DNA of 64,000 nt. Source: Thermoleophilaceae bacterium (GTDB taxonomy: Bacteria > Actinomycetota > Thermoleophilia > Solirubrobacterales > Thermoleophilaceae). Below, one piece after another: positions 9,818 to 53,788 of the stretch; the stretch's first letter is position 1, and each line of letters begins with the position of its first letter. Under the pieces are notes generated by a model. It had not been told where the DNA came from. It did not search any database and was given only the letters and a program-made list of their open reading frames with translations. The stretch is taken from NCBI GenBank assembly GCA_040901445.1, contig JBBDYQ010000002.1:310001-374000 (forward strand). The letters are read 5' to 3'. A program made the position numbers and the translations under genes.

Positions 9818-9881
9818 GGCGGCAAGGTAGGGCCGAACTTCATCAAACCGCCCAGAACTGGACGGATGGCCGATCAAGACC

Positions 9882-11449: not shown

Positions 11450-11519
11450 TCCGCAGCGTCCGTAAGCAACTTGTCGGTGGGCGCGCTGTTCATACGGTCA
11501 TACACTGGATTGGACCGTA

Positions 11520-12896: not shown

Positions 12897-12901
12897 CCGG
12901 C

Positions 12902-13345
12902 CTACGTCGTGCGGATGATCAGCACGCTGCAGGGAGCGTGATGGGAGACCTTGTTCGGCACGCTGCCGAGCAGGAAGCGGCGGGCCCCGGTCATGCCCTT
13001 GTTGCCGACCACCACGAGGTCGGCGCCCTTCTCCTCGGCGACGTCGAGGATCGCGTCGGCCGGGTCGCCCTCGCGCGCGTAGGTGGACACGTCCACGCCC
13101 GCCGACTCGATGCCCTTGGCCGCCTCGCTCAGCGTGGCCTCGACGTCCTCGCGCGGGTTGACCATCCACTGCAGGTCCTCGGGCACCTGCACGCGCTCCT
13201 CGCGCAACCTGGTCTCCGACACCGGCTCGTACGCGCTCACCAGGTGGACGGTGCCCCCGACCGCCTTGGCCAGCTCCGTGGCCTGCCGGACCGCCTCCTT
13301 CGCGGTGTCGGAGCCATCGGTACCTACCACCAGCGAGCTGAACAT
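12902..13345 (-). CDS. Universal stress protein, UspA family
   Basis: A 147-residue protein with the UspA fold: MFSSLVVGTDGSDTAKEAV at the N-terminus, VAEEKGADLVVVGNKGMTG and the ATP-binding signature G-x2-G-x9-G-S in GMTGARRFLLGSVPNKVSHH, then APCSVLIIRTT. It is therefore probably an ATP-binding member. It is a cytoplasmic protein linked to stress or dormancy survival. It is divergent from the NarL-type regulator 84 bp away, which might indicate shared control. Confidence 0.93.
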   Translation of the reverse strand: MFSSLVVGTDGSDTAKEAVRQATELAKAVGGTVHLVSAYEPVSETRLREERVQVPEDLQWMVNPREDVEATLSEAAKGIESAGVDVSTYAREGDPADAILDVAEEKGADLVVVGNKGMTGARRFLLGSVPNKVSHHAPCSVLIIRTT

Positions 13346-13429
13346 CGCACTCCTTCCGAGGAACCTGCCGGGAAACCGCGCGCATCATATCCGTCACCCA
13401 TGTCCCCGTTTCGGGGTTACGATGCAGCC

Positions 13430-32180: not shown

Positions 32181-33605
32181 TCAGAGCCCGGCGGGCACGA
32201 CCGCGTTGCAGTTGACGTCGCGCACGTGCCGCTGCGTGCCGAGCGGCAGCGCGGGGTCGAAGCTGGCGTCACCGATCGGCTCCGACAGCGGCCCGCGCTC
32301 GTTGGCCGCCTCGTTGGCGGTGTCGTAGCAGGTGCCCTGGGTCCAGGGAGCGTCGAACGCCTGCGCCTTGGCCACGACGTCGTCGCGGTCGGCCGGCAGC
32401 AGCCAGCCCTGGGCCAGCTCGTGGTCGGCCCACGCGGTGACCTGCGCCACGTACCCGTCGTGTGTCGGGTAGAGCGACCGGATCTTGGCCGAGCTCCAAG
32501 AGCGGTGGGTGCCCCAGAGCGGACAGCCCTCCGCCGAGTTGTAGGCCACGGGCACGTGCACGAACGGATGGCGCAGGCCGCCCCTGGCCAGGCCGTGCTC
32601 GTCGCGCGACACCTCACCGGAAGCGTCGCGCTCGATGCGCGGGGCCGACGGCGGCAGGGTGCCGTCCTCGAGGAAGCGCTGCGTCCAGTGGGCGAGCGCG
32701 CGCGAGCTGTAGTCGACCGAGCCGCGGTTCACCGAGCAGGCCGCCTCCAGGGGATCGGGCACCGGCAGGCCCGCGGCGTGGTCGCGCTGGATCTCCCGCC
32801 AGACGTAGCCCCACCACGGCGTGGGGGCGTGGGCGGTGCCCGCCTCCTCCCACAGCACGTAGCGGTCGTCGTCGGGCGGGTGCTCGGCGAGGCCCTCCTC
32901 GTTGAGGTGGAAGATCGGCGTGGAGAAGTCGTCGAACGGACCGCCGCCCCGGGTGATGGTGAAGACGTCGATTCCCCCGCGGGCATATCCGCCGTTGATG
33001 AACGACGTGAGCCGCGACGCCGACTGCGACGCGCCCGTGGCCACGACGTGCTCGAGCGCCAGGCCATCCATGGGATCGAGGCCGGATGGGTCGCGCAGCG
33101 CCTGGATGGCCTGGCTGAAGATGTCGAACGAGAAGTCGTCGCCCGGGTGCAGCAGCGGCGCGTAGCGCACCGGGTCCCAGAGCTTCAGCGTGGTGGGCAG
33201 GCAGCACACCCCCGCGAGCTGTGCAGACACGCCCACGTACGCCGCGCCCTGCTCCATGAGGTACTCGCCCGCCGGCGGCCATACCGTCTCGAGGTCGTTC
33301 TGGCCCGTGACGTTGAGCCACTCCACGACCACCGTGCCGTTGAAGCGGTCCGGGTCCTCGGGCAGCCGCACGAGCATTCGGCTCCGGTACGGAGCGGTGG
33401 CGCCACGGGCCAGGTTCGTGGCCGTGCCGCCGAAGAAGTACTCCCTCTCCGTGTAGCCGTCGAGCGCGTAGAGGCTGTGGTTCCAGGGGTAGCCGCGCAC
33501 ACCCCCATCCACCGGTCCGTCGACCTCGGGGCTCGCCACCTGCGCCTGCGCGGCGGGGGCGAGCACGGCGGCCAGCGCGGCCGCGACGACGATCATCCGC
33601 CTCAT
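32181..33605 (-). CDS. Secreted alpha/beta hydrolase-domain protein (Abhydrolase_10-like)
   Basis: A 474-residue secreted protein (signal MIVVAAALAAVLAPAAQAQ). It resembles the alpha/beta hydrolase-domain family with RFNGTVVVEWLNVTGQNDLE near the N-terminus and a nucleophile elbow in VVATGASQSASRLTSFING at about residues 200-218 (Gly-x-Ser-x-Ser). GIDVFTITRGGGPFDDFST and the C-terminal HPFVHVPVAYNSAEGCPLWG also fit. Cys in GVCCLPT, CYDTANEA and NCNAV may form disulfides. It is probably an esterase acting outside the cell; the substrate is unknown. The ATG overlaps the upstream DUF6351 gene stop by 4 bp. Confidence 0.78.
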   Translation of the reverse strand: MRRMIVVAAALAAVLAPAAQAQVASPEVDGPVDGGVRGYPWNHSLYALDGYTEREYFFGGTATNLARGATAPYRSRMLVRLPEDPDRFNGTVVVEWLNVTGQNDLETVWPPAGEYLMEQGAAYVGVSAQLAGVCCLPTTLKLWDPVRYAPLLHPGDDFSFDIFSQAIQALRDPSGLDPMDGLALEHVVATGASQSASRLTSFINGGYARGGIDVFTITRGGGPFDDFSTPIFHLNEEGLAEHPPDDDRYVLWEEAGTAHAPTPWWGYVWREIQRDHAAGLPVPDPLEAACSVNRGSVDYSSRALAHWTQRFLEDGTLPPSAPRIERDASGEVSRDEHGLARGGLRHPFVHVPVAYNSAEGCPLWGTHRSWSSAKIRSLYPTHDGYVAQVTAWADHELAQGWLLPADRDDVVAKAQAFDAPWTQGTCYDTANEAANERGPLSEPIGDASFDPALPLGTQRHVRDVNCNAVVPAGL

Positions 33606-35797
33606 GGGATCACCTCCGAGCGCGGCGCCTCGCCCAGCGGGCGCCCGCCGTAGATCACGTCTCCACCCTCGTCCTGGTAGGTCTGCCACGGGATCGTGTC
33701 GACCTGATCGACACCGGGCCGGCTCCAGTCGCACACCCCCGTGGGGAACGCCCGCTGGAGCCGCTCCCACTGCTCGCCGGTGAACTGCACCGGGTAGTGG
33801 TCGGTGCGCGCCAGCGGCTTGAGGGTGCACTTGTTCACGTCCGTCTCCACTCCCTCGCCCGCCACGGTCCGCGGCGTGCCGTAGCGGGACTGGACGTCGC
33901 GCAGCTCGCACACCCGCCCGAGCCCCGGCAGCTCGATGGCCTCCGCCAGAGGCACCTGCGAGCAGCGGTCGCGCAGGTCGGCGGGCCGGTTGTCCACGAT
34001 CTTCTGGGCAAGTGGGGAGTCGCTGACGTCTGCCTCGACCGACGTCAGCCAATGGTCCATCGCCAGCAGGCCGGCGGTCGTGTAGCCCAGGTCGCCGATC
34101 AGCGGCACGTGCCCGAACCAGATCACGTGATTGCGGAAGTGCCCCTGTTCGCGCTCGAGCCGCGCGCGCGTGGCCCAGGTGCGATAGGCGTCGTGGAAGG
34201 CGCCGTGGTCGGGGCCGCGCAGGTCGATGATCGCCACCTGGTCGAGGTTGTTGGCCTTGTTCACTCCGCCGCTGCGGTACGCGTTGACGAGCGCCGGCTG
34301 ATCGGCCTCGAGCCGCTCGGGAGTGGGGTTCACGTCGATGTCGCCGCCGCCGACCTTCTCGTTGAGGTCCACGAACTGCGCCGGGGTGATCGATCCCTCC
34401 TCGAGCGCCTCCAGCCCGTACTGCACGCCCACGTTGTCCAGCGGCAGGCCGGCGAAGCCGCGGCCGATCTCGCGCTCGGGGGCGATCCACCGGTCCTCGG
34501 GTCGCGGACCGAGGACGTTGACCATGTAGTCGGCCAGCGTGCAGCGCACGCCGCCGGGGTTGGTCTCGGCGTCGTAGAGCTGCTCGTCCGTGACGCCCGG
34601 GCAGCCGGAGTCAGGATCCCCCAGCGACGTCCAGTAGAGGCTGTCGAGGACGATCGAGTTGACGTGGTTGGGGTGGTCCTCAACGGCCGCGATGTCCAGC
34701 GGCGTCCACACCACGCCGGGTGCCCACCTGGCCGGGTTCTCGAGGTACAGGCGCAGCAGGTGGTAGTCCACGAGCTGCTGCCCCGTGGACCACGCGTCCG
34801 GGAAGCTGCATTGCGGCAGGATGCCCTGGTAGACGCCGGGGTAGGCGTTGGCCACCTGCTGCTGGGTGAGGGAGCCGCCCGAGCAGCCCGTGCCGATCGT
34901 GAAGCGGATCAGGCCGTACTGCTCCACCAGCCGCTCCTTGGCCATGACGAGCGACTCGGCCTGGGTGGCGATGTTGCAGTTGTGGCCCGCGTTGTTCAGG
35001 GCCGTGGACATGACGGCGAAGCCGCGCGCCAGGGCGGGCTCGTTCATCACGCCGGGGGCCTCGCCCGCCTGGCGCTCGATGCCGCAGCTCGCCCCGTGGG
35101 TGATGAGCAGCTTGCGGTTCCAGCCCGGCTGCGGCGCCCAGGGCTCCCACTCCTCCGCGGGGTCGTAGAGCACGGCGATCCGGTACTGGTCGCGGTTCTG
35201 GTAGCCGGTCTCCACGCGGACCACGTAGGGCATCTCGACACCCTGGTCGGTGCGCGTGGTGCCCAGATCGGGGGGCGGGCTCTCCGGGTCGTAGGGGTTG
35301 AACTGCCCGGTGACGGAGGACTTGTAGAAGAGCTCGTACTCCACCGGCTGGTTGCACTGCTCGTCCACAGCGGTGTCCTGGCACGTCCACGGCTGCACCT
35401 GCGGGCCGGAGAAGACGGGGCCGCCGTTGGGATGGTTGAAGATCTCGATGCGGGCGCCGCCCGGCCCCGCGGGCAGATGCGCCTCCAGCACGTTGACGCC
35501 GTCGTCGAGGCCGGTGACGAGTCCCTCGAGCTCTCCATTCGCGCGCACGGCGAACGCGCCGGTGACGTCGCGGCCGTCGTCGGTCACGCGCACACCGGTG
35601 GGGTCGGCTCCCTCCGGCAGGTTCACGCGCACGAGCGCGTCGCCGGCGGAGATCAGGTCCGCGCGGTTGGACAGCACGTCGATGGACGGCGCAGTCTGCG
35701 CGGCGGCGCCCGGCGCCGGCAGCGCAGCCGCCGCGACCGCCGCCGCGAGCACTCGGCGCGCGACACGGCCTCGCCTACGAGACAGCTCCCCTGTCAA
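33602..35797 (-). CDS. Secreted DUF6351-family protein, alpha/beta hydrolase-like
   Basis: A 731-residue secreted protein from a TTG start with GGGGAG 5 nt upstream. A twin-Arg-like or Sec signal (RRVLAAAVAAAALPAPGAAAQ) precedes a beta-sandwich N-terminal domain (PSIDVLSNRADLISAGDALV). The main domain carries LLITHGASCGIERQAG and the elbow IGTGCSGGSLTQQQVAN (Gly-Cys-Ser-Gly-Gly), pointing to a serine hydrolase fold. DUF6351 has no assigned activity. Translationally coupled to the Abhydrolase_10-like gene, it may act with it on the same extracellular ester or polymer. Confidence 0.8.
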   Translation of the reverse strand: MTGELSRRRGRVARRVLAAAVAAAALPAPGAAAQTAPSIDVLSNRADLISAGDALVRVNLPEGADPTGVRVTDDGRDVTGAFAVRANGELEGLVTGLDDGVNVLEAHLPAGPGGARIEIFNHPNGGPVFSGPQVQPWTCQDTAVDEQCNQPVEYELFYKSSVTGQFNPYDPESPPPDLGTTRTDQGVEMPYVVRVETGYQNRDQYRIAVLYDPAEEWEPWAPQPGWNRKLLITHGASCGIERQAGEAPGVMNEPALARGFAVMSTALNNAGHNCNIATQAESLVMAKERLVEQYGLIRFTIGTGCSGGSLTQQQVANAYPGVYQGILPQCSFPDAWSTGQQLVDYHLLRLYLENPARWAPGVVWTPLDIAAVEDHPNHVNSIVLDSLYWTSLGDPDSGCPGVTDEQLYDAETNPGGVRCTLADYMVNVLGPRPEDRWIAPEREIGRGFAGLPLDNVGVQYGLEALEEGSITPAQFVDLNEKVGGGDIDVNPTPERLEADQPALVNAYRSGGVNKANNLDQVAIIDLRGPDHGAFHDAYRTWATRARLEREQGHFRNHVIWFGHVPLIGDLGYTTAGLLAMDHWLTSVEADVSDSPLAQKIVDNRPADLRDRCSQVPLAEAIELPGLGRVCELRDVQSRYGTPRTVAGEGVETDVNKCTLKPLARTDHYPVQFTGEQWERLQRAFPTGVCDWSRPGVDQVDTIPWQTYQDEGGDVIYGGRPLGEAPRSEVIP

Positions 35798-37001: not shown

Positions 37002-38528
37002 TCAGCGGTCCCGGAAGCGCACCACCCCACCGAACGTGCCCGCGTACGCGGCCCCGTCCGGGCCCAGGACCACGGCCCCGCCCTCGCTGTTGTGGCCCAG
37101 GCCCTCGCCGGCGAGCGCCTGGAAGCGGAGGTCGCCGGTGCGCCAGTCAAGCGCCGCGAGGTTCCAGGCGTCGGGAAAGCCGGCCGGCTTGACGAGCGTG
37201 TAGAGCAGTCCGGTCTCGCGCGAGACGACCGGCTGGGCCGACGGGGAGATCGCAGCGCTCGTCCAGGCCACCCGGCAGCCACGCCGGCCCACCACGACGC
37301 GCGCGATTCCGCCGCTGGTGGTGCGGCCGCCCTCGGTGGTGAGCAGGTTCTCGTAGCCGTAGGCGTTCATGGCCACCACCGAGCGCCCGGCCGCCACGAG
37401 GTGGGCCTCCACGCTGCCCTGCCCGGGCCGGAAGACCGGCACGGCGCAGGCCAGACGGCGGGCGCTGCGCCCGCGGATCCTCACGACGGTCACGCGCGGC
37501 GGGTTGAGCCCGTCGGCCACGGCCACGAAGCGGCCGGCCACGACGACGGGCGGCGTTCCCGATCCGAGGTGGAGGCGCCCGGCACGAGGGTCGGCCACGC
37601 CCTGGGGCAGCGGTTGGCGCCACACGACCCGCGGCGTGCCGTCCTCGCCGGCGCGCAGGCGGTACAGGGCGTAGCGCGTCACCACATACGTGCCCGTCGG
37701 GTCGGTGGCCAGGTCCTCCGCGATCGGCTCGTTCAGCCGGAGCGCCCGCGGCGGGCCGGCCTCGCGGGGCAGGGTCACGATCGTGCCCTGGTTGCCGGCC
37801 ACCCAGTCGCGCCCGTCGAAGCCCGCGCCCACCGCGAACGGGCGCTCGCCCGATCGCAGCACGTGCGAGAGGCCGATCGTGCCGGTCTGGCGCAGCGCGG
37901 CCCGGTCCACCGCCACCGTGATCAGCGTCCCGGCGTTGGTGGGCACCAGCAGCGAGCCGTCGGCGCGGACGACGAAGTGCGTGCCGCCCGCGAGGTCGGT
38001 GCGGTCGCCGCTCGTGCGCAGCGGCAGGGTGAGCGTGGCGATGGTGGCCAGCGTGTCCGGGTGGATCAGCCGCAGCGCCGGACCCAGGATGCCGTTACAG
38101 ACCGCCAGCAGCCTGGCGGTGGCGTCGAAGGCCAGCGACGCGCAGGTGCCGAACTGCAGCGCGCCGGCGCGCGCGGTGCCGCGACCGAGCGGCCCCGGGT
38201 TGGGCGATGCCGCCCCGTTGCCGGACGCCAGGCCGCTGCCGCTGGCCCCGTCGGGTGCCAGCGCGGGATTGGCGGGCGGGAACGGGCCGCTCAGCGGCCG
38301 CGGCTCGGCGGGCGCGCCCTGGAAGGGCGGCAGTGGGCCGTCGAGCGGGCCCGGGATCGGGATCGCGGGCAGCTGCGCGTGCGCGGGTCCCGGCGCGGCG
38401 GCTGCCAGGCCGGCGGCAAGCGCGACGACGACCGCGCAGGCGACGCCCCGCACCAACGAACGTCCCGCCTCACCCCGTATAGCGGGGTACTCCGGGACGT
38501 TCATCGAGCGCCGGCGGCCGGGGCGCAT
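37002..38528 (-). CDS. Secreted beta-propeller-like protein, last gene of the sulfatase operon
   Basis: About 508 residues if ATG 38528 is used, 500 from ATG 38504; neither has a strong ribosome site. A Sec signal (VACAVVVALAAGLAAAAPGPAHA) is followed by a Pro/Gly-rich linker. A body of strand pairs such as LLAVCNGILGPALRLIHPDT, RADGSLLVPTNAGTLITVAV, TDPTGTYVVTRYALYRL and VVVAGRFVAVADGL looks like propeller blades. Four or more Cys may pair. The start overlaps the stop of the 62-residue gene, so it belongs to the same transcript as the sulfatases. It may bind the sulfatase substrate, but this is inference only. Confidence 0.7.
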   Translation of the reverse strand: MRPGRRRSMNVPEYPAIRGEAGRSLVRGVACAVVVALAAGLAAAAPGPAHAQLPAIPIPGPLDGPLPPFQGAPAEPRPLSGPFPPANPALAPDGASGSGLASGNGAASPNPGPLGRGTARAGALQFGTCASLAFDATARLLAVCNGILGPALRLIHPDTLATIATLTLPLRTSGDRTDLAGGTHFVVRADGSLLVPTNAGTLITVAVDRAALRQTGTIGLSHVLRSGERPFAVGAGFDGRDWVAGNQGTIVTLPREAGPPRALRLNEPIAEDLATDPTGTYVVTRYALYRLRAGEDGTPRVVWRQPLPQGVADPRAGRLHLGSGTPPVVVAGRFVAVADGLNPPRVTVVRIRGRSARRLACAVPVFRPGQGSVEAHLVAAGRSVVAMNAYGYENLLTTEGGRTTSGGIARVVVGRRGCRVAWTSAAISPSAQPVVSRETGLLYTLVKPAGFPDAWNLAALDWRTGDLRFQALAGEGLGHNSEGGAVVLGPDGAAYAGTFGGVVRFRDR

Positions 38529-38689
38529 GCCTGTGATGCCACCGCCGTCATCGCCGGCCAGACGAGCAGGCCGTACCAGCGGTAGCGCTCGAAGCGGGCG
38601 GTGGTGATCAGGTTGATCACGTCCAGCGGCCCGCCGAGGTCGCGGCGGATGAGTGCGGCAAGCGGCCGCGGGCGGATTCGGGTGAGCAT
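38501..38689 (-). CDS. 62-residue protein between sulfatase and propeller genes
   Basis: The ATG at 38689 follows GAGAGGA by 8 nt, a good ribosome site. The product begins MLTRIRPRPLAALIRRDLGG and ends with RWYGLLVWPAMTAVASQACA, one hydrophobic stretch that could be a membrane anchor. It lies 22 bp after the sulfatase stop and overlaps the start of the next gene. Ribosome site, spacing and sense of transcription support it as real. I do not recognise a family. Confidence 0.55.
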   Translation of the reverse strand: MLTRIRPRPLAALIRRDLGGPLDVINLITTARFERYRWYGLLVWPAMTAVASQACAPAAGAR

Positions 38690-38711
38690 CTGGTCGTCCT
38701 CTCTCGCTCGG

Positions 38712-40514
38712 TCAGGCCCCGGGTGTGAGCTCGCAGAACCAGCGCGCCAGGTCCGCGGCGCGCTGGGCGTTCGACGGGCCCCCGAGCACCTGCGGGGACC
38801 CGCCCTCGTAGAGGAAGCGCGCCGGGTTGGGCTGCTCCATCGGCACCACGAGGTAGCTGCCCGGACGCGCGCCCACCCACGGGTTGGGAAGGCCCCTGTC
38901 CGACAGCTCCAGGCTCGGCGGCTCGGGCAGGCGGGTGATGGGCGCGCGCGGGCCATAGGCCGGCACGTCCACCGGTGAGAACTTCTCCTCCTCGCGCTCG
39001 TAGAGCCAGGCCAGCATGTCCTCGGCCAGCGCCTGGTAGCCGGGGTCGTTGGCGAGATTCCGGATCTCGAACGGGTCGTTCCAGGTGTCGTAGAGCTCGT
39101 ACTCCTGGCCGTCGCGCAGCTCCTCCCCCGCGAAGTGCTGGTCGGCCACCGCCACGTAGCGGGCGAACTTGTGCCGGCCATCGAAGATCGCGCGGATGTG
39201 GGTGTTGGTGGGCACCGCCGTGCCGGCGTTGGTGGTCGGGTACTCGTCGATGCGGTACAGGATCGAGTCGCGCGGGCCGGGGTCGTCCGGATCCTCGAGC
39301 GAGGAGACGAGGCTCACGCCGCGCAGCCACGGCCAGCGGCGCACGGGATCCGGCTCCCCCGCGATCTCGAGCAGCGTGGGCACGAGGTCCACCGCCTCGC
39401 CAAGCGCCTGCGAGCGCCGCCCGCGCGGGAAGCGCTTGGGGTAGACGACGGTGAACGGCACGCGGTTCTGCTCGTCGTACATCGTCGTGCCCTTGTTCTG
39501 CAGGCGGTGGGCGGAGGCGAGCTCGCCGTGGTCGGCCGTGCGCACGATCACGGTGTCGTCGAGCACACCCTGGTCCACGACTTCTCTCACGGCGGCCCCG
39601 AGCATGTCCTCTGTCCCCACGATCAGGTCGTGGTAGGTGTTGATGTGGCCGCGCCAGTACTCGGGGTTGTCGAACTCCGCGGCCGGCGTTCCGGCCACGA
39701 TCGCCGCCACGTTGCGGAAGCGAGCATGGGCGGTGGGCTTGTCGCTCGTGGTCGGCTCCGCGTGGAAGGACGGCTCGAGCTCCGGGCGGTGGTCGGGGCG
39801 CTGGAAGTCCACGCGAAACCCGCGCGGGTAGAACTGGATGTCGTGCGGGTTGAGCAGGCTCAGCACGCACAGCCAGGGCTTGGCGTCGCGGGCGTGGCCG
39901 CGCAGGAAGTCGACGGCCTGGGCGGTCCAGAGCGGGTCGTTGGTGTAGCCGTCGTTGTAGGCGCCGACGTCGGCGGGAGGCGAGATGGCCGAGTGGTCGA
40001 AGCCGTAGCCGCGCAGCGGGTTGCCCTGGGCGGTGTCGAGCAGGGCCTCCGCGTTGGTGGGCGGGTCGCCCGGGAACGACAGGTGCCACTTCCCGAAGAA
40101 GGCCGTCTGGTAGCCCAGCTCCTTGAACAGGTCGCCGATCGTGGGGATCGACGGGTCCATCGTGAACTGGAGGCCGAGCACGAAGGTGCCGTACACGCCC
40201 TGCTGGGGCGCGTACATCCCGGTCCAGTGACACGCGCGCGAGGGGGAGCACGCCATCGCCGAGGCGTGGAAGCGGTCGATGCGCGTGCCGTTGGCGTCCA
40301 GCCAGCAGCGCACCGGGGTGGGCAGGTCCTCGGGCAGCCGGTCCTGATGGCGCTCCTGGTCGGTCATCAGGATCAGCACGTTGGGGCGTCTCCCCGCCGC
40401 GGCCGAGCGGTCGGCAAGCGCCGCGCCGCCCAGGCCGACGACGCCGGCGGCCGCTGCCATCCGCCCCGCCTTCGCCAGCAGCTCGCGGCGGTCGCTGGTC
40501 TCGCCCGCGCTCAC
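38712..40514 (-). CDS. Tat-exported sulfatase with canonical CSPSR active site
   Basis: A 600-residue arylsulfatase-type enzyme. The N-terminus has a twin-Arg signal (SDRRELLAKAGRMAAAAGVV, then GLGGAAL). The metal site is NVLILMTDQERHQD. The formylglycine motif is in MACSPSRACHWTGMY (Cys at about residue 92, CxPxR). FGKWHLSF, LLNPHDIQFY and TADHGELASAH complete the active site. The C-terminal region (DGQEYELYDTWNDPFEIRNL) is typical of the family. It hydrolyses sulfate esters after Cys is converted to formylglycine by an FGE not seen in this window. The GTG start overlaps the upstream propeller gene stop. Confidence 0.92.
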   Translation of the reverse strand: MSAGETSDRRELLAKAGRMAAAAGVVGLGGAALADRSAAAGRRPNVLILMTDQERHQDRLPEDLPTPVRCWLDANGTRIDRFHASAMACSPSRACHWTGMYAPQQGVYGTFVLGLQFTMDPSIPTIGDLFKELGYQTAFFGKWHLSFPGDPPTNAEALLDTAQGNPLRGYGFDHSAISPPADVGAYNDGYTNDPLWTAQAVDFLRGHARDAKPWLCVLSLLNPHDIQFYPRGFRVDFQRPDHRPELEPSFHAEPTTSDKPTAHARFRNVAAIVAGTPAAEFDNPEYWRGHINTYHDLIVGTEDMLGAAVREVVDQGVLDDTVIVRTADHGELASAHRLQNKGTTMYDEQNRVPFTVVYPKRFPRGRRSQALGEAVDLVPTLLEIAGEPDPVRRWPWLRGVSLVSSLEDPDDPGPRDSILYRIDEYPTTNAGTAVPTNTHIRAIFDGRHKFARYVAVADQHFAGEELRDGQEYELYDTWNDPFEIRNLANDPGYQALAEDMLAWLYEREEEKFSPVDVPAYGPRAPITRLPEPPSLELSDRGLPNPWVGARPGSYLVVPMEQPNPARFLYEGGSPQVLGGPSNAQRAADLARWFCELTPGA

Positions 40515-41476
40515 GTGCGCACCGCGCCGATCGCTCCCGTGAGGGCGTCCACGGTCCACGCCCGAGGGCCGGCCACCGCGAGGCCGCGCGGCGCGCCGCC
40601 GACCGCGTGGCTGGTGGTCGCGCCACCGCGCTCGAACGCCACGATCTCCCCGGCGCCGCCGAGCGCCACCAGCCGGACTCCCCCGGGCGTCCAGGCCACG
40701 GCGCTCGGCAGGCGGCCGGCGCGGCGGCGGGTCACGTGCCCCGAGGCCACGTCGATCTCGCTCACGTTCTCGGCATCGAGGCCGGCATGCGAGACGAGCA
40801 TCCGGCGGCCGTCGGGAGACAGGGCCAGGTGCTCGGGCAGCGGAGGCGTGCGCAGGCTCCGCTGCACCCGTCCGCTGTCGATGTCCACGCGCACCGCCCG
40901 GTCGAGGCCACAGAGGGCCACCCAGGCCGCCTCGCCTTCCGGGTCCGCCGCCACGCCGCGCGGGACCGTCCCGATCGGGGCGTGGGCGAGGACGCCGAGG
41001 CCGTCGGCGTCCAGCACGTGGACCTCGCCCTCCTGCTCGCCGCCGCTCACCACCAGCCGGTCGCCTGCGGCGAATGCCACGGCGCAGGGGGCGGGCCCCA
41101 CCGCGACGCGCCCGAGGAGCGTCGCGGCGTCGAGATCGATCAGCGCCAGGCCGGGCTGGTCCCACGCCGCCGTGGTCACGGCGGCCAGGCGCCCGTCGGG
41201 CGACACCGCGGCTGCGAGCGGCTGCCCACCGACGTCGACGAGGCGCGACCCGGCGCGTCCCGGCACGGAGATCGCGATCGTGCGCCGCTGGTCGTGAGCC
41301 ACGACGAGGCGGCGCCCGTCCGGCGCGGCTGCGATCGCCCGGCCGCGCCGCACGATCTCCTGCTCGGCCTGGAGCGGGCCGGCGGGCGCGGGCCCGGCCG
41401 CCTGCGCCACCGATGACGGGATGACCCCGCCCGCGAGCGCCCCGGCCAGGAAGCCGCGGCGCGTCGTGGGGCTCAT
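40511..41476 (-). CDS. Tat-exported YncE-like beta-propeller protein
   Basis: A 321-residue protein with a twin-Arg signal (MSPTTRRGFLAGALAGGVIP) and seven-bladed propeller-type repeats: AIAAAPDGRRLVVAHDQRRT, PLAAAVSPDGRLAAVTTAA, PRGVAADPEGEAAWVALC, EHLALSPDGRRMLVSHAG and PSAVAWTPGGVRLVALGG. Such SPDGxxLxV repeats mark the YncE/YVTN group, secreted proteins of mostly unknown binding role. It is sandwiched between two sulfatases with 4-bp overlaps on both sides, so it is made in step with them and may bind the same polymer. Confidence 0.87.
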   Translation of the reverse strand: MSPTTRRGFLAGALAGGVIPSSVAQAAGPAPAGPLQAEQEIVRRGRAIAAAPDGRRLVVAHDQRRTIAISVPGRAGSRLVDVGGQPLAAAVSPDGRLAAVTTAAWDQPGLALIDLDAATLLGRVAVGPAPCAVAFAAGDRLVVSGGEQEGEVHVLDADGLGVLAHAPIGTVPRGVAADPEGEAAWVALCGLDRAVRVDIDSGRVQRSLRTPPLPEHLALSPDGRRMLVSHAGLDAENVSEIDVASGHVTRRRAGRLPSAVAWTPGGVRLVALGGAGEIVAFERGGATTSHAVGGAPRGLAVAGPRAWTVDALTGAIGAVRT

Positions 41477-43296
41477 GGGCGCCCCTCCCGAAGGCGTGCA
41501 GGCTCCAGCTCGCACAGCATCGACGCGCGCTGGCGGGCGCGCGCCTCGGCCCTCCCGCGCGAGGCGTCGGCCGTCCGCGGGCGGCGCTCGCGCCCCGCGT
41601 CGTCGTAGATCAGGCGCTCGAGGTGGGGGTCCTCGATCGGCAGCTGGACATAGGCGCCCGGGATGCCCGCGACCGGCGAGGGTCCGCTCTCCCCCTCGGC
41701 CAGCGGCGTCTCGGGCCGCCCGATCGGGTCGGGGCGCAGCGGCTCCACCAGCGACGGGGCGCCGTAGGCGGGCACCTCCACAGGCGACAGCCGCTCGTCC
41801 TCGAGCTCGCGCAGGCGGGCCAGCAGCTCGTCGAGCAACGGACGGTAGGCGGGGTCGCGGGCGAGGTTGCGCAGCTCCAGCGGGTCCTCGGCGAGGTCGT
41901 AGAGCTCGTACTCCTGGCCGTCGGTGAGCTCGCGCCGCGGCTTGCCGCTCATCGCCACGTAGCGCGCCACCTTGTAGCGCTCCGAGAGCGCCGCGCGCAC
42001 GTGGCGCCGCCACGGCTTGCCGATGCCCGCGAAGTCCTGCACGGTCCAGTTCTCGTCGCACGTGGTCACGGTGAAGTCCCTGCCCTGCGCGGTTGCCGGC
42101 TGCTCCAGCGCGGGCACGAGCGACCTGCCGCGCAGCCACGGGTAGCGCACGCCGGGGCGCTCGACCCCGGCCAGCTCGAGGCACGTGGGGACGAGGTCCA
42201 CCGCCTCCGCGAGCGCCGGCGTTCGCGAGCCCTGGTTGGCGAAGCCGGTGGGCCAGGAGATCGACAGCGGCATCCGGACCTGCTCCTCGTAGATGGTCGG
42301 GCCCTTGCCCAGCGCGCGGTGCGAGGCACCCAGCTCACCGTGGTCGGAGGTGCGGATGATCACGGTGTCGTCCATCCCTCCGGAGTCGTGGAGGGCCTTG
42401 ACGATCGCGGCCAGGTTGTGATCGGTGTTCACGATCAGGTCGCAGTAGGTGTTGAGCAGGCGCCGCCACGTGGCCGTGTCGTCCGGCGCGATGTTGCCGC
42501 GGATCAGCGCCGCGCCCTCGTGGTATTGCCCGTGCACCTCCGGCTTCGTGGCCCCGTCGTCCTCGAAGTTCGGCGGCAGCTCCACCTGCCAGTCGGGGCG
42601 CCGCACGTCCACGCTGAACCCGCGCGGGAAGTACGCGATGTCGTGGGGATTGAGGAGCGAGACCACGAGCACCCACGGCCGCTCCTGCCCACCGTGCTCG
42701 CGCAGCCAGTCGATCCCCTGCTTGGTCCAGAGCGGGTCGTTGTAGACGCCGTCGTTGTAGCCCACGGGCTCGAGCGACGGCGACTGCTCGGAGTAGTCGA
42801 AGCCGTAGGGGCCGAGGTAGTTGCCACCCACGTTCTCCGCCGGGCCCTCGGGCAGCGACGTGCCGGCCATGCTCAGGTGCCACTTGCCGTAGTACGCCGT
42901 CGTGTAGCCCTGCTCGCGCATGAGGTCGCCGAGCGTGGGGATCCGCGGGTCGAGCGAGAGCTGCCAGCTCTGGAGGAAGTTGCCGAAGAGGCCGTTCTGG
43001 GGCACGTACATCCCGGTCCAGAAGCAGGCCCGGCTCGACGAGCACTGGACCGCCGTGTGGTGGAAGCGATCGAAGCTCACGCCGCGCGCGTCGATCCAGT
43101 CGCGCGCCGGCAGCGGCAGATCCGGCGTCCACTGCGGCGAGCGCTCCTGGTCGCACATCAGGATGAGGATGTTCGGCTTGCGCGCCGGGGCCTCGCCGGC
43201 CTGGGCGAGGGTGCGGCCGAGCAGCCCAGGCCCGAGCGCGGCGGCGGCGCCCACGGCGGCGGCGCTGCCGAGGAAGCTGCGGCGGGTTGTCGTCAT
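41473..43296 (-). CDS. Tat-exported sulfatase-like hydrolase with unusual CSSSR motif
   Basis: A 607-residue homologue of the sulfatase two genes downstream. It has a twin-Arg signal (MTTTRRSFLGSAAAVGAAAA), metal site NILILMCDQERSPQ, then TAVQCSSSRACFWTGMY at the active site (Cys at about residue 84). The usual Pro/Ala at +2 is Ser here (CxSxR). YGKWHLSM, LLNPHDIAYF and TSDHGELGASH are intact, so metal ligands and fold are kept. Whether the Cys is still matured is uncertain. ATG 43296 is preferred over TTG 43305. It is first in the operon, and operator-like repeats begin one base upstream. Confidence 0.9.
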   Translation of the reverse strand: MTTTRRSFLGSAAAVGAAAALGPGLLGRTLAQAGEAPARKPNILILMCDQERSPQWTPDLPLPARDWIDARGVSFDRFHHTAVQCSSSRACFWTGMYVPQNGLFGNFLQSWQLSLDPRIPTLGDLMREQGYTTAYYGKWHLSMAGTSLPEGPAENVGGNYLGPYGFDYSEQSPSLEPVGYNDGVYNDPLWTKQGIDWLREHGGQERPWVLVVSLLNPHDIAYFPRGFSVDVRRPDWQVELPPNFEDDGATKPEVHGQYHEGAALIRGNIAPDDTATWRRLLNTYCDLIVNTDHNLAAIVKALHDSGGMDDTVIIRTSDHGELGASHRALGKGPTIYEEQVRMPLSISWPTGFANQGSRTPALAEAVDLVPTCLELAGVERPGVRYPWLRGRSLVPALEQPATAQGRDFTVTTCDENWTVQDFAGIGKPWRRHVRAALSERYKVARYVAMSGKPRRELTDGQEYELYDLAEDPLELRNLARDPAYRPLLDELLARLRELEDERLSPVEVPAYGAPSLVEPLRPDPIGRPETPLAEGESGPSPVAGIPGAYVQLPIEDPHLERLIYDDAGRERRPRTADASRGRAEARARQRASMLCELEPARLREGRP

Positions 43297-43357
43297 TGAT
43301 GACAACGTGTCAGCAACCTACCCGAGCTGATGACGTCGTGTCAACACACTGTCATCA
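43297..43357. promoter_or_regulatory. Cluster of repeated operator-like sequences between sulfatase operon and tetR
   Basis: TGATGACAACGTGTCA (43297-43312) and TGATGACGTCGTGTCA (43328-43343) match at 14 of 16 positions and are 31 bp apart. The first contains the perfect palindrome TGACA-ACG-TGTCA. An inverted third copy starts TGTCAACAC and ends TGTCATCA at 43357; TGATGAC (43328-43334) and GTCATCA (43351-43357) are perfect inverted arms. The cluster fills the gap upstream of both genes and is a likely multi-site TetR operator. Confidence 0.65.
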
Positions 43358-43387: not shown

Positions 43388-43999
43388 ATGAGCGTGGCCG
43401 TCCAACGCACCAGGCGCCGTCAGCAGCGCGAGGAGACGCGCCGCCAGATCCTCGACGCGGCCCAGGCATTCCTGCGCGAGCGCTCGTTCCGCGAGCTGAG
43501 CGTCGACACGCTGATGTCACGCACCGGACACACGCGGACGGTCTTCTACCGCCACTTCGAGGACATCCCCTCGCTCGTGCTGGCGCTCATGGAGGACGTC
43601 GGCTCGGAGCTCGTCGAGGTCGCCCAGGGTTGGGCCCTGTCCGACCGGGTGGGCCCCGACGTGGCGCGCGAGCGGCTCGGAGCCTTCGTGGACTTCCACG
43701 TGCGCCACGGCCGGCTCGTGCGGGCGGTCGCGGAGGCGGCCCATCACGACGACGCCGTCGAGCGGGCCTACAGCGGGATGGTCGAGAGCTTCATCGCGCT
43801 CACGGCGGGCGCCATCCAGCAGCGCGTCGACAGCGGCGAGCTCGCGCGGCTGGACGCCCCCGAGGTTGCGCGGGCGCTGGTGCGGATGCTCAACGGCTAC
43901 CTCGGCGACGCGCTCGGCGGGGAGGAGACCACCGACCCCGAGCGCGCGCTCGAGACCGTGTGGACGATCTGGACCCGCACGCTCTTCCCGGCGGGCTGA
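43388..43999 (+). CDS. TetR-family regulator of the sulfatase locus
   Basis: A 203-residue regulator with the TetR DNA-binding domain: RRQILDAAQAFLRERSFREL, then SVDTLMSRTGHTRTVFYRHF. The C-terminal helices (LGAFVDFHVRHGRLVRAVAE, then AVERAYSGMVESFIALTAGA) form the ligand domain. It is divergent from the sulfatase operon across a 91-bp gap holding three operator-like repeats, so it probably represses both the operon and itself until a ligand binds. The next gene starts within about 65 bp on the same strand. Confidence 0.92.
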   Translation: MSVAVQRTRRRQQREETRRQILDAAQAFLRERSFRELSVDTLMSRTGHTRTVFYRHFEDIPSLVLALMEDVGSELVEVAQGWALSDRVGPDVARERLGAFVDFHVRHGRLVRAVAEAAHHDDAVERAYSGMVESFIALTAGAIQQRVDSGELARLDAPEVARALVRMLNGYLGDALGGEETTDPERALETVWTIWTRTLFPAG

Positions 44000-44064
44000 C
44001 CGTCCCGCACCACCCGCGGCTGTGGCCCGGGCCGTGGCCGGCCGAGGACGGCGGCCCGCGGCGC

Positions 44065-45342
44065 ATGCAGCAGCCCCGCGATCTCCCGGGCCTGGACATC
44101 CGCGACGGCGAACGGCTCGAGACGACCGCCGTGCGCGACGCGCTCGGCACGACGATGGTGATCCTCCGCGAGCCCGGCGAGGTCTTCGTCCTGCGCCACA
44201 GCCTCGGCCGCCGTCCGCTCCGCGATCCGGTCGTGGCCTGGGTGGAGCGCATCGACCCGCTCACGCTGGCACCGCTGCGGCGCTCCCCCGACCTGGCCGC
44301 CGGCCCGTTCTGGCCCGGCGGCATGGCGGCGCACGCCAACGGGTCGCTCCACGTCGTGATGGGCAATCACTGCCACCGGCTCTCGCCGGACCTCGAGCTG
44401 CTCGCCACCCGCCGGCTGCCGGCGCCCCGCCCGTACAACTCCTTCGTCGTCCTGGACGACGGCACGCTCGTCACGAAGGACTTCGACCGCGACCTGCGCG
44501 AGCCCGCGCGGCTCGTGCTGCTCGACCCCGACTCGCTCGCGCCGCGCTGCGAGCCGGTCCCTCTCCCCGAGCCGGCAATCGCCCGGCTGTCCGCCTACGG
44601 AAACGACCTCTACGTGGTCGGCGCGCGCACGGTCGTCCGGATGCGCTGGGACGGGGAGCGCATGGAGCGCGACGCGAGCTGGGGCGCGCCGTACCTGCTC
44701 CCCGGCCAGGGTTACGGCTGGGACCCGGTGGTCGCGGGCGGCCAGCTCTGGTTCCTCGACAACGGCGAGCACGACTTCGTCACCACCATGCGCGGGGCCG
44801 GCGCCGGGCCCGGACCGGTGCACCTGGTCCGGATGTCGCTCTCGGACCGCGACGACCTCGAGCGTGTCGAGGTCTGCGGCAGCGCGCGCGGGGCGGTCAC
44901 CAACCCGCCCCTGTACGACCCGGCGCGGCGCATCGCGGTGGCCTATGACTCCGCCAACGGCGTGGTTCAGGCGTTCCGCTTCGGAGAGCGCCTTACGCCG
45001 CTGTGGCGCCGCGAGCTCTCCCACGCGGCGCACATGGTCCTCCACGCCGCCACCGGCGAGCTCGTGCTCGGCGACTACCACGGGCCCGCGATCGCCCGCA
45101 CCCGCGCCGGGCGCGCCGTGGGGCGCCGCGCCACGGCGGTCGTGCGCCGCCCCGCGTTGCGGCGGCTCGCAACGCTCGGTAGCCGGGAGGACGTGGTGGT
45201 CGTCGACGTCGAGACCGGCGCGGAGCGCGGCCGGGCGGCGGTCCCGAGCCTCATGCAGTCCGTGGTGTTCCCCGCGCCCGGGTTCGGCCGCGACCTCTAC
45301 TGGTGCTCGATGACGACGCTGGCGCGGGTCGCGGTCGCCTGA
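44065..45342 (+). CDS. Propeller-like protein downstream of tetR, function unknown
   Basis: 425 residues from ATG 44065. The open frame continues upstream to the tetR stop and includes a plausible WPGPWPAEDGGPRR segment, so the true start may be further left on a rare codon. Strand-rich repeats suggest a propeller: LETTAVRDALGTTMVILREP, GSLHVVMGNHCHRLSPDLEL, VVLDDGTLVTKDFDRDLREP, GNDLYVVGARTVVRM and GELVLGDYHGPAIARTRAG. There is no signal peptide from the chosen start. It is co-directional with tetR and probably co-transcribed; it could sense or bind the sulfatase substrate inside the cell. No family is recognised. Confidence 0.68.
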   Translation: MQQPRDLPGLDIRDGERLETTAVRDALGTTMVILREPGEVFVLRHSLGRRPLRDPVVAWVERIDPLTLAPLRRSPDLAAGPFWPGGMAAHANGSLHVVMGNHCHRLSPDLELLATRRLPAPRPYNSFVVLDDGTLVTKDFDRDLREPARLVLLDPDSLAPRCEPVPLPEPAIARLSAYGNDLYVVGARTVVRMRWDGERMERDASWGAPYLLPGQGYGWDPVVAGGQLWFLDNGEHDFVTTMRGAGAGPGPVHLVRMSLSDRDDLERVEVCGSARGAVTNPPLYDPARRIAVAYDSANGVVQAFRFGERLTPLWRRELSHAAHMVLHAATGELVLGDYHGPAIARTRAGRAVGRRATAVVRRPALRRLATLGSREDVVVVDVETGAERGRAAVPSLMQSVVFPAPGFGRDLYWCSMTTLARVAVA

Positions 45343-51250: not shown

Positions 51251-53788
51251 ATGCGGTGGAGGGGTTGGATGGTTGCGCTCGTGCTCGTGATCGCGGCGGG
51301 GGGCGCGGCCCGCGAGGCAAGCGCGTCCGAGGATCTGACGGCCTACGTGAATCCCTTCAGCGGCACTGCGGCGGGCGCGCCGGACTTCGGCACCGGCGGG
51401 GGAGCGGGGAACACGTTTCCGGGGCCGGTGCTTCCGTTCGGGATGATCCAGTGGGGCCCGGACACGAGCCCGTCGTCGGCCAACGTCGGGGGCGGCTACG
51501 CGTACGGCGACTCGAAGATCCGCGGCTTCAGCGTCCGGCGGCTGAGCGGCGCCGGCTGCGCGAACGGCGGCGACTTCCCGTTCCTGCCGACGACCGCCCC
51601 GGTCGAGGGCTCGCCGGTGAAGCCGCTCTCGACGGAGTTCGCCGACGCGTTGCTGCCGTCGTTCTCGCACGACGACGAGGCCGCCGCGCCCGGTTACTAC
51701 CGGGTGGGGCTGGACCCGGGCACGCCCAGGCGGATCGACACCCGCTTGACGGCCACGCGGCGCGGCGGGATGGCTCGCTTCGAGTTCCCGGCCACTCGGA
51801 CCGCGAGCGTTCTGATCAACGCGACCGGCAGTCGCAACGGAGCATCTGCGGGGTCGATCCATGTCGATCCCGCCCGGCGCGAGATCACCGGCTCGGCGTC
51901 GACCGGCGGCTTCTGCCTCGAGCCCAACCGCCACAGGATCTACTTCGTGGCGCGTTTCAGCCGGCCGTTCGCGGCCCATGGCACCTGGACGCGGCAGGCG
52001 CTCGCTCCGGGCTCGACGTCCGCCCGGGACTCCTCGCTGCTCGACCCCCTGGCTCAGGGCGAGGACGGTCCGACCGGCTTCACCGGCTACGGCCCGGCCG
52101 CGCTCTCGACCTTCGGGCCGTTCGCGTTCGGCGGTTACGGCCCGACCGCGCAGACCGGCGCCTACGCCACCTTCGACACGACCACCCGGCGGGAGCTCGA
52201 GGTGCGGGTGGGGATCTCCTTCGTGAGCGTCGAGGGCGCGCGGCGGAACCTCGACGCCGAGCTCGGCGACGGCGACTTCCGCTCGGTCAGAGCGGCTGCC
52301 CGCCGGAGCTGGAACCGCATGCTCGCCAAGATCGAGGTCGAGGGAGGGGTCGCCGCGGACCGGCGCACCTTCTACTCGATGCTCTACCACGCGCTCATCG
52401 CGCCGACCACGTTCAGCGACGTCGACGGCCGCTACGCGGGCATGGACGGCCGGGTGCACACGGCCGAGGGCTACACGCAGTACGCGGACTTCTCCGGCTG
52501 GGACGTCTACCGGAGCCAGATGCCGCTGCTGGCTTTGATCGCGCCGCGGCAGGCGTCCGACTTCGTGACCTCGCTGCTGGCGAACCAGCGCGAGAGCGGC
52601 TGGCTGCCGAAATGGTCGGTTGCGAACAGCCAGACGGAGGTCATGACCGGAGACCCAGCGGCCCCCACCATCGCGAGCATCTGGGCGCTCGGCGCGCGTG
52701 ACTTCGACGAGCACGCCGCCCTGGCGGCGATGGTCAAGGGCGCGACGCAGGCGGGCACGAGCGCGAACGCCGGATATGTGGAGCGCCAGGCGGTCGACGA
52801 CTACCAGCGGCTCGGGTACGTGCCTCACGAGAAGAACGCGAGCCTCCTGACGGTGGGCGTGGACGCGTGGCGTCGCGTGCTTCCTGCACCCCAGCCCAAC
52901 AGCCTCGACCTGGCGTGGGGATCGGCGGGGACGACGCTGGAGTACGCGACCGACGACTTCGCGGTGGCGCGAATGGCCGCCGCCGTGGGCGAACGCGCAA
53001 CCTGCCGGACGTTCCTGCGGCGCTCGGCCAACTGGCGCAACGTCTTCGACACCTCGATCGGCTACGTGCGCCCGCGCTACTCGAACGGCCTGTTCCGGAC
53101 TCCGTACGACCCGAACTCCAACGATCCCCTGAGCAGCCAGGGCTTCGCCGAGGGCAACGGGGCCCAGTACACCTGGATGGTGCCGCACGACCCTGCCGGG
53201 CTCTTCCGCGCGCTCGGGGGCAACGAGGCTGCCGCCGCGCGCCTGGACCACTTCTTCGAGGAGCTCAACGCCGGCTACAACTCGCCGCATGCCTTCCTCG
53301 GAAATGAGCCCAACTCGAACGCGCCGTGGCTCTACGACTGGCTCGGGCAGCCCTACAAGACCCAGGACGTGATGCGCCGCGCGATCCTCTCGATGTTCGA
53401 CGCCACGCCGGGCGGCTACCCGGGCAACGACGACCTCGGCCAGATGTCGGCCTGGTACGTCTTCGGGGCGCTCGGCTTCTACCCCGAGATCCCCGGGACC
53501 GACGTGCTGGCCCTGGGCAGCCCTCTGTTCCCGAGGGCGACCGTGCATCTGCCCGGGGGCGACCTGACGATCACGGCCCCCGCGGCTGCGCGCGACGCTC
53601 CGTTCGTCCAGCGGCTCGAGCTCAACGGAAGCCGCTGGAGCAAGCCCTGGCTGCGACTGCGCCAGGTGGCCCGGGGTGGAGAGCTCGCGTTCGATCTGGG
53701 TGGCGAGCCCAGCCCGCGCTGGGGGAGCGCGCCCTCCGATGCACCCCCTTCCTTCGGCCCGGACGCGGCCGGCGGCTGCGGGGGATAG
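51251..53788 (+). CDS. Secreted GH92 alpha-mannosidase
   Basis: 845 residues with a Sec signal (MVALVLVIAAGGAAREASA). It starts with the N-terminal domain YVNPFSGTAAGAPDFGTGGG, then GNTFPGPVLPFGMIQWGPDT. The catalytic domain holds QGFAEGNGAQYTWMVPHD (about 630-647) and GNDDLGQMSAWYVFGALGFY (about 724-743), the hallmark Glu/Asp motifs of Ca2+-dependent GH92 exo-alpha-mannosidases. It trims mannose from glycans or mannoproteins outside the cell. It directly follows the LAL regulator. With the sulfatases nearby, a glycan-degrading role is plausible. Confidence 0.93.
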   Translation: MRWRGWMVALVLVIAAGGAAREASASEDLTAYVNPFSGTAAGAPDFGTGGGAGNTFPGPVLPFGMIQWGPDTSPSSANVGGGYAYGDSKIRGFSVRRLSGAGCANGGDFPFLPTTAPVEGSPVKPLSTEFADALLPSFSHDDEAAAPGYYRVGLDPGTPRRIDTRLTATRRGGMARFEFPATRTASVLINATGSRNGASAGSIHVDPARREITGSASTGGFCLEPNRHRIYFVARFSRPFAAHGTWTRQALAPGSTSARDSSLLDPLAQGEDGPTGFTGYGPAALSTFGPFAFGGYGPTAQTGAYATFDTTTRRELEVRVGISFVSVEGARRNLDAELGDGDFRSVRAAARRSWNRMLAKIEVEGGVAADRRTFYSMLYHALIAPTTFSDVDGRYAGMDGRVHTAEGYTQYADFSGWDVYRSQMPLLALIAPRQASDFVTSLLANQRESGWLPKWSVANSQTEVMTGDPAAPTIASIWALGARDFDEHAALAAMVKGATQAGTSANAGYVERQAVDDYQRLGYVPHEKNASLLTVGVDAWRRVLPAPQPNSLDLAWGSAGTTLEYATDDFAVARMAAAVGERATCRTFLRRSANWRNVFDTSIGYVRPRYSNGLFRTPYDPNSNDPLSSQGFAEGNGAQYTWMVPHDPAGLFRALGGNEAAAARLDHFFEELNAGYNSPHAFLGNEPNSNAPWLYDWLGQPYKTQDVMRRAILSMFDATPGGYPGNDDLGQMSAWYVFGALGFYPEIPGTDVLALGSPLFPRATVHLPGGDLTITAPAAARDAPFVQRLELNGSRWSKPWLRLRQVARGGELAFDLGGEPSPRWGSAPSDAPPSFGPDAAGGCGG

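What the first reader, a model, noticed from the sequence alone, without database searches (positions are those of the whole stretch)
37002..43296. Coupled operon: Tat sulfatase, Tat propeller, Tat sulfatase, miniprotein, secreted propeller
Start/stop overlaps or very small gaps join all five genes, and four of the products have export signals. A propeller between two sulfatases suggests a folded, exported complex acting on a sulfated substrate. I know of no described system with this order.
Basis: partly seen in the sequence, partly recalled or inferred. Interest (0 to 1): 0.55.

Follow-up and report, generated by a model that had tools for sequence, protein, structure and literature searches.

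The report
Exported sulfatase–propeller operon, repressor controlled
An actinobacterium carries a rare set of linked genes for two exported sulfatase-type enzymes and two propeller proteins next to a switch gene; the set is real and shared with a distant relative, its 'miniprotein' looks like the stump of a larger gene, and no known enzyme for activating such sulfatases was found in the genome.

Summary
Five minus-strand genes (43296 to 37002) are joined by three 4-base overlaps and one 22-base gap: two sulfatase-family enzymes, two propellers and a 62-aa product; four have export-type leaders. The same order recurs in a genome of another family of the order (G102:C1, 57-77% identity). G140, of G102's genus, keeps propeller–sulfatase–propeller, and a second G102 locus has propeller–sulfatase. 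Full-length sulfatase relatives were found in 3 of 232 genomes of the order.

Three things change the reading. (1) The 'miniprotein' matches the first ~50 residues of a 256-residue DUF1330-type protein that is whole in G102: probably a deletion remnant. (2) A divergent TetR gene belongs to the system: two operator-like sites, 31 bases apart, recur in both species. (3) The host's only FGE-domain protein is EgtB; neither FGE nor anSME was found in the three operon genomes, and sulfatase 1 has C-S-S-S/A-R, outside (C/S)-X-(P/A)-X-R.

Best reading: a TetR-regulated, exported ester-sulfatase module grown from a propeller–sulfatase pair. A complex and a polysaccharide substrate are not shown. Some other genomes with sulfatases also lack FGE, so the maturation gap is a lead, not a proof.

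The parts
41473..43296 (-). Sulfatase 1 (607 aa, Tat-type leader), active-site motif C-S-S-S-R
   Evidence: PF00884 E 6e-41; Tat model over NCBIfam cut-off; motif; 74% to G102
40511..41476 (-). Propeller 1 (321 aa, twin-arginine leader by eye)
   Evidence: Model pLDDT 85.5; YVTN/YncE-like propeller matches; 57% to G102
38712..40514 (-). Sulfatase 2 (600 aa, GTG start, twin-arginine leader by eye), active-site motif C-S-P-S-R
   Evidence: PF00884 E 3.5e-39; motif; 77% to G102 and to G140
38501..38689 (-). 62-aa product, probable remnant of a 256-aa DUF1330-type gene
   Evidence: 70% identity over 50 residues to residues 1-50 of the G102 protein; DUF1330 in that protein
37002..38504 (-). Propeller 2 (500 aa, Sec-like leader; start 38504 ATG or 38453 GTG)
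   Evidence: Model pLDDT 82.1, Z 35.6 to YxaL; 72% to G102, 75% to G140
43388..43999 (+). Divergent TetR-family regulator with EthR_C domain
   Evidence: TetR_N and EthR_C over cut-off; 67% to the TetR gene at the same place in G102
43297..43311 (+). Operator-like site 1, adjoining the sulfatase 1 start codon
   Evidence: TGATGACRNSNTGTC, recurs in L042 at 13279-13293
43328..43342 (+). Operator-like site 2, 31 bases on
   Evidence: same pattern, recurs in L042 at 13310-13324

Best explanation
This is a TetR-regulated operon for an exported ester-sulfatase module. SHOWN by sequence: two sulfatase-family enzymes that keep the residues expected of the active site, a propeller translated just before sulfatase 2, a second secreted-type propeller, and a divergent TetR gene with two operator-like sites that recur in another family. 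SHOWN by comparison: the order is kept in G102; the recurring unit is a propeller followed by a sulfatase; the miniprotein corresponds to the start of a DUF1330 protein that is whole in G102. INFERRED: the pair was duplicated (G102 has propeller–sulfatase 1–propeller–sulfatase 2; the window lacks the first propeller). INFERRED: a small ligand lifts the repressor; the sulfatases and propeller 1 fold in the cytoplasm, leave by Tat, and cleave a sulfate (or possibly phosphate or phosphonate) ester outside the membrane, with the propeller as partner or docking surface. I think a small or lipid-like ester somewhat likelier than a polysaccharide. How the active-site cysteine works without a visible FGE or anSME is open: an unknown maturase, or catalysis by the unmodified cysteine.
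For: Gene order and junctions in window and G102; partial units in G140 and G102:C5. Nine positions that I take, from recall of sulfatase structures, to be metal and catalytic residues are invariant in 6 of 6 sequences: D52, C89, R93, K142, H144, H224, D328, H329, K341 of sulfatase 2. Operator-like sites. Crude NG86 dN/dS ratios of 0.28 to 0.61 in 8 comparisons. DUF1330 in the G102 protein and the match of the stump to its start. No FGE or anSME found. TatC in the host.
Against: No activity, expression or interaction data. Only two complete operons are known, and G102 and G140 are of one genus, so there are two independent lineages. The duplication reading rests on one extra propeller in one genome (40% identity to propeller 1). 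The family of propeller 2 is otherwise found without a common neighbour, so its link to sulfatase action may be loose. The substrate is a guess: a sugar sulfatase is the closest solved structure by profile and a GH92 gene lies nearby. At G102:C5 the operator pattern is not found exactly; a 2-mismatch site lies at 7277-7291, but matches with up to 3 mismatches are no more than chance there.
Confidence: 0.6

Rival explanations
1. One reading: a folded, exported sulfatase–propeller complex that strips sulfate from a sulfated polysaccharide.
For: Kept adjacency and common export-type leaders; SGSH_C domain; exo-L-galactose-6-sulfatase 7lha is the best solved match by profile; GH92 at 51269-53788.
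Against: No glycosidase or lyase in the operon or among the flanking proteins scanned (6 of 10 in G102, 7 of 10 in G140), where acyl-CoA-type genes recur; no interaction data.
Confidence: 0.2
2. The enzymes are alkaline-phosphatase-superfamily hydrolases that act mainly on phosphodiesters or phosphonates, using a cysteine that is not turned into formylglycine.
For: No FGE or anSME found in the three operon genomes; sulfatase 1 lacks Pro/Ala in the motif in 2 of 2 sequences; phosphonate monoester hydrolases are among the profile matches; unmodified choline sulfatase turns over, though slowly (PMC6189696, passages).
Against: Sulfatase 2 keeps the standard motif; sulfatases outrank phosphonate hydrolases in the matches; genomes with ordinary sulfatases also lack FGE at times.
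Confidence: 0.12
3. An ordinary operon of loosely related secreted proteins that travel together, with no joint function of propellers and sulfatases.
For: Propeller 2 belongs to a family that is common in the order (60 of 201 genomes) without a shared neighbour; the DUF1330 gene is whole in G102, a stump here and absent in G140.
Against: Propeller 1 type stands directly before the type-2 sulfatase in 4 of 4 loci, one of them a separate locus.
Confidence: 0.2

Closest known systems
Type I (formylglycine) sulfatases, Pfam PF00884 with SGSH_C PF16347; best NCBIfam match choline-sulfatase TIGR03417
   Same: Domain, residues at the expected metal and active-site positions, cysteine at the nucleophile position
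   Different: Far below the choline-sulfatase cut-off (112 and 98 vs 433 bits); a C-terminal stretch of ~80-90 residues ending in CEL, absent from the six more distant sulfatases aligned and beyond the matched part in the 60 of 75 solved matches shown; sulfatase 1 motif without Pro/Ala; no FGE found
YVTN/YncE-like and hydrazine-synthase-beta-like propellers (propeller 1)
   Same: Fold and profile similarity
   Different: Below every NCBIfam cut-off; here a twin-arginine protein coupled to a sulfatase
YxaL, Rv3035, BamB-type propellers (propeller 2)
   Same: Fold: Z 35.6, 348 residues, 2.5 A to YxaL; Z 33.4 to Rv3035
   Different: 16% identity; no Pfam or NCBIfam family at E 0.01
Iota-carrageenan sulfatase CgsA (PMC4144425, abstract and passages)
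   Same: Propeller modules joined with a sulfatase activity outside the formylglycine family
   Different: There two propellers are fused to an amidohydrolase-type domain; here separate propellers are coupled to PF00884 enzymes; no sequence link was tested

Membership tests
Type I sulfatase (S1 family) | PF00884 domain over the curated cut-off | tested here: met
   141 and 135 bits vs 25
Type I sulfatase (S1 family) | Metal and catalytic residues (roles recalled) | tested here: met
   nine positions invariant in 6 of 6
Type I sulfatase (S1 family) | (C/S)-X-(P/A)-X-R at the active site (as in PMC6189696), sulfatase 2 | tested here: met
   CSPSR; 4 of 4 type-2 sequences
Type I sulfatase (S1 family) | (C/S)-X-(P/A)-X-R at the active site, sulfatase 1 | tested here: not met
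   CSSSR and CSSAR, 2 of 2 type-1 sequences; the 10 other sequences compared all have Pro
Type I sulfatase (S1 family) | Strict PROSITE PS00523 and PS00149 (patterns as quoted in PMC4144425) | tested here: inconclusive
   No match in either enzyme, but PS00523 missed 12 of 12 and PS00149 10 of 12 of the sequences compared, so the strict patterns do not discriminate here
Type I sulfatase (S1 family) | A formylglycine maturase (FGE or anSME) in the genome | tested here: not met
   Only PF03781 protein is EgtB; no TIGR03942 match. A genomic, not a protein feature; known to be lacking in E. coli-type cases (PMC6189696)
Type I sulfatase (S1 family) | Hydrolysis of a sulfate ester | not testable with these tools
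   no assay
Choline-sulfatase (TIGR03417) | Equivalog cut-off | tested here: not met
   112.3 and 97.9 vs 433.45 bits
PQQ-dependent catabolism-associated propeller (TIGR03866), propeller 1 | Subfamily cut-off | tested here: not met
   61.1 vs 287.3 bits
DUF1330 (PF07045), miniprotein | Domain over cut-off | tested here: not met
   No Pfam match of the 62-aa product; the 256-aa G102 protein passes, 24.7 vs 23 bits
TetR regulator of this operon | Divergent position with recurring operator-like sites | tested here: met
   binding itself not testable here

The most novel reading that the evidence does not exclude
The operon is a self-contained, FGE-independent sulfatase system: the Tat-borne propeller translated with the sulfatase (or another operon product) either oxidises the active-site cysteine or supplies what the unmodified cysteine lacks, and so would be a route to the missing third sulfatase maturation system.
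Probability: 0.06. Interest if true: 0.8.

Novelty: new variant of a known kind. Interest (0 to 1): 0.4.

Why it matters
The sulfatase fold is well known. The arrangement (a propeller ahead of a sulfatase with kept overlaps, its own TetR and paired operator-like sites) was not met in the paper searches made, and close relatives were found in only 3 of 232 genomes of the order. It sits in genomes where no formylglycine maturase was found, and one of its two enzymes departs from the maturation motif. That makes the open question of FGE-free sulfatase activation testable in a compact gene set: purify, read the active-site residue by mass spectrometry, and delete the propeller.

Tried and rejected
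Miniprotein as a conserved small protein: rejected. It matches the first ~50 residues of a 256-aa protein in G102. In a class sample of 299 genomes 7 had a match at E 0.01 or better: G000 itself, G102 (1e-16) and five at 0.001-0.009. Its crude dN/dS (0.55) is higher than that of the sulfatases (0.32-0.40), but it is 50 codons, and TetR has 0.61.

Relation between propeller 2 and the window protein at 43996-45342 behind TetR: none found (hhalign probability 0.2%).

Shared neighbours of other copies of propeller 2: in 29 loci, most with only 1.5 kb on each side, no neighbour cluster occurred in more than 3 loci.

Lack of FGE as unique to this operon: rejected. Of 16 control genomes (hand-picked: 11 with more distant sulfatase relatives, and 5 others), all 16 have a PF03781 match. 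In 9 of 16 it includes a protein with the C-x-R-[YF]-R motif that I recall for FGE. In 6 (G047, G127, G005, G164, G144, G695) there is one EgtB-type gene only; of four of these scanned, one passed the EgtB cut-off and three had EgtB as best match below it. G029 is unclear: a 191-bit match without the motif. Of the 11 with sulfatase relatives, 7 have FGE, 3 (G047, G127, G695) do not, 1 (G029) is unclear. One search also marks L097 and L114 (G164), but on an open frame of the wrong strand.

Strict PROSITE patterns as a mark of this clade: rejected, since other sulfatases in the set miss them too.

Plasmid relatives: 3 records at 28.5-29.9% identity, none covering 80%. Genome-contig scan: 6 loci, one close (the G140 contig, 77%) and five at 27-36%. 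That scan used two short peptide patterns, did not return G102, and may leave out the host, so it is not exhaustive. None of ten loci of more distant sulfatases (L059-L063, L080-L084) has a neighbour matching either propeller.

In one search I aligned G102:C5 in a wrong frame; this was redone. My gene caller missed the C5 sulfatase; it was found.
Full report
WHAT IS THERE. On the minus strand, 43296 to 37002, lie sulfatase 1 (607 aa), propeller 1 (321 aa), sulfatase 2 (600 aa), a 62-aa product and propeller 2 (500 aa). Junctions are a 4-base overlap, a 4-base overlap, a 22-base gap and a 4-base overlap; the start codon of propeller 2 is uncertain (38504 ATG, or 38453 GTG). Divergent to them is a TetR gene, 43388-43999, with TetR_N and EthR_C domains over their cut-offs.

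THE PROTEINS. Both sulfatases match PF00884 and SGSH_C and are 47% identical to each other. The clade shares a C-terminal stretch of ~80-90 residues ending in CEL, which the six more distant sulfatases aligned lack; in the 60 of 75 solved matches shown, the best stretch ends at or before position 521 of 598. Propeller 1 models well (pLDDT 85.5, its first 40 residues excepted) and resembles the YVTN surface-layer, hydrazine synthase beta and YncE propellers. Propeller 2 models well apart from its first 40 residues or so (pLDDT 82.1), with best Z 35.6 to YxaL (348 residues, 2.5 A) and 33.4 to Rv3035. Propeller 2 and the 62-aa product have no Pfam or NCBIfam match at E 0.01.

CONSERVATION. In G102:C1 (another family of the order) the order is TetR | extra propeller – sulfatase 1 – propeller 1 – sulfatase 2 – 256-aa protein – propeller 2, with identities of 74, 57, 77 and 72% for the four shared full-length genes and 67% for TetR. 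G140 is of the same genus as G102; its contig matches JAOPZJ010000433.1, Solirubrobacterales MAG RYN_252, in length and match place. That contig begins inside the operon and has propeller 1 – sulfatase 2 – propeller 2 with no gene called between the last two. G102:C5 has TetR | propeller – type-2 sulfatase, then a 418-aa protein without a family. So a propeller stands directly before the sulfatase in 4 of 4 type-2 loci and in 1 of 2 type-1 loci. Full-length relatives (over 1000 bits) occur in 3 of 232 genomes of the order; the next best scores 247 bits (threshold 1e-70, at most five candidates scored per genome). In a phylum sample of 396 genomes only the host has them, the next best at 258 bits. 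Propeller 2 has relatives in 60 of 201 genomes of the order, the host included; in 29 such loci no neighbour cluster recurred in more than 3.

THE MINIPROTEIN. Its first 50 residues are 70% identical to residues 1-50 of the 256-aa G102 protein, which has a DUF1330 domain at 34-103, just over the cut-off (24.7 vs 23 bits). Matches to that protein occur in 61 of 232 genomes of the order, mostly to residues 15-105 and mostly weak. The remaining ~200 residues have no match at this place in the window. The stump thus ends inside the domain. I read it as a deletion remnant that keeps a ribosome-binding-like GAGAGAGGA before its ATG and still runs into the next gene; it may serve only to pass ribosomes on (inference).

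REGULATION. TGATGACRNSNTGTC occurs twice in the window, at 43297 and 43328, and twice in L042, at 13279 and 13310, and nowhere else in either, with 0.00 expected in shuffles. Among all 127 loci held it occurs in 6, all of which are copies of these two places. I derived the pattern from these two regions, so the shuffles show rarity, not independent discovery; what counts is recurrence in another family with the same 31-base spacing. At G102:C5 there is no exact copy; a 2-mismatch site lies at 7277-7291, within a number of loose matches that chance would give. Site 1 adjoins the sulfatase 1 start codon.

MATURATION. Type I sulfatases carry formylglycine made by FGE or anSME at (C/S)-X-(P/A)-X-R (PMC6189696, passages). 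The host (estimated 100% complete) has one PF03781 protein: EgtB, 409.6 bits against a cut-off of 360, beside EgtD. G102 has one, best match EgtB at 311 bits (below the cut-off), also beside EgtD. G140 has none, but is 88% complete. TIGR03942 (anSME) has no match in 3 of 3. FGE is detectable in the order: 9 of 16 hand-picked other genomes show a protein with the recalled FGE motif. But three genomes with more distant sulfatase relatives also show none (G047 and G695 with a Cys-type motif; G127's motif not inspected), so absence is not special to the operon. Sulfatase 1 has CSSSR here and CSSAR in G102, while the 10 other sequences compared keep Pro. PMC6189696 also states that E. coli's own maturation machinery is unidentified, and cites a paper on a third maturation system, which I saw only as a citation; it reports slow but multiple turnover by an unmodified choline sulfatase.

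SUBSTRATE. Flanking genes scanned include, in G102, a thiolase, a ChsH2-type OB-fold protein, a DsbA-type protein and a DUF1254/DUF1214 protein, and in G140 an alpha/beta hydrolase, FMN reductase, SDR, APH-type kinase, CoA-transferase III, enoyl-CoA hydratase and acyl-CoA dehydrogenase (6 of 10 and 7 of 10 called flanking genes). TetR carries an EthR_C domain. In the window there are DUF6351 and Abhydrolase_10 hydrolases and a GH92 about 8 kb away. I lean weakly to a small or lipid-like ester; sugars are not excluded.

VERDICT. I call it a new variant of a known kind; the maturation gap gives it its interest. No paper describing this arrangement appeared in the searches made (listings; passages of three papers read). 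On checking, I mended identities, a gap length, flank counts and the weight of the PROSITE test; the odds did not change.

Noticed in passing
window 51269-53788: GH92-type glycosidase (both GH92 domains), about 8 kb from the operon.
   Followed up: no
window 32181-35797: Neighbouring DUF6351 tannase-like and Abhydrolase_10 genes, both with export-type leaders by eye.
   Followed up: no
window 43996-45342: Gene directly behind TetR without a Pfam or NCBIfam match; reads like another propeller, but no link to propeller 2 was found, and G102 has other genes there.
   Followed up: partly
G000:C2:89937-91352 (L045 7926-9377): Second copy of the propeller 2 family in the host (39%), overlapping a pair of mutually related genes (9362-11395 and 11374-13413).
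   Followed up: no
L042 13961-15213: Two genes behind the G102 TetR, the second a DsbA-type protein, in place of the window's 43996-45342 gene.
   Followed up: no
G047, G127, G695: Genomes with more distant sulfatase relatives and only EgtB-type PF03781 proteins, that is, also without a visible FGE.
   Followed up: partly
G000:C15:317629-318561, G000:C15:319257-319529, G000:C13:7225-7833: Three further PF00884 matches in the host outside the operon; their active-site motifs were not inspected.
   Followed up: no
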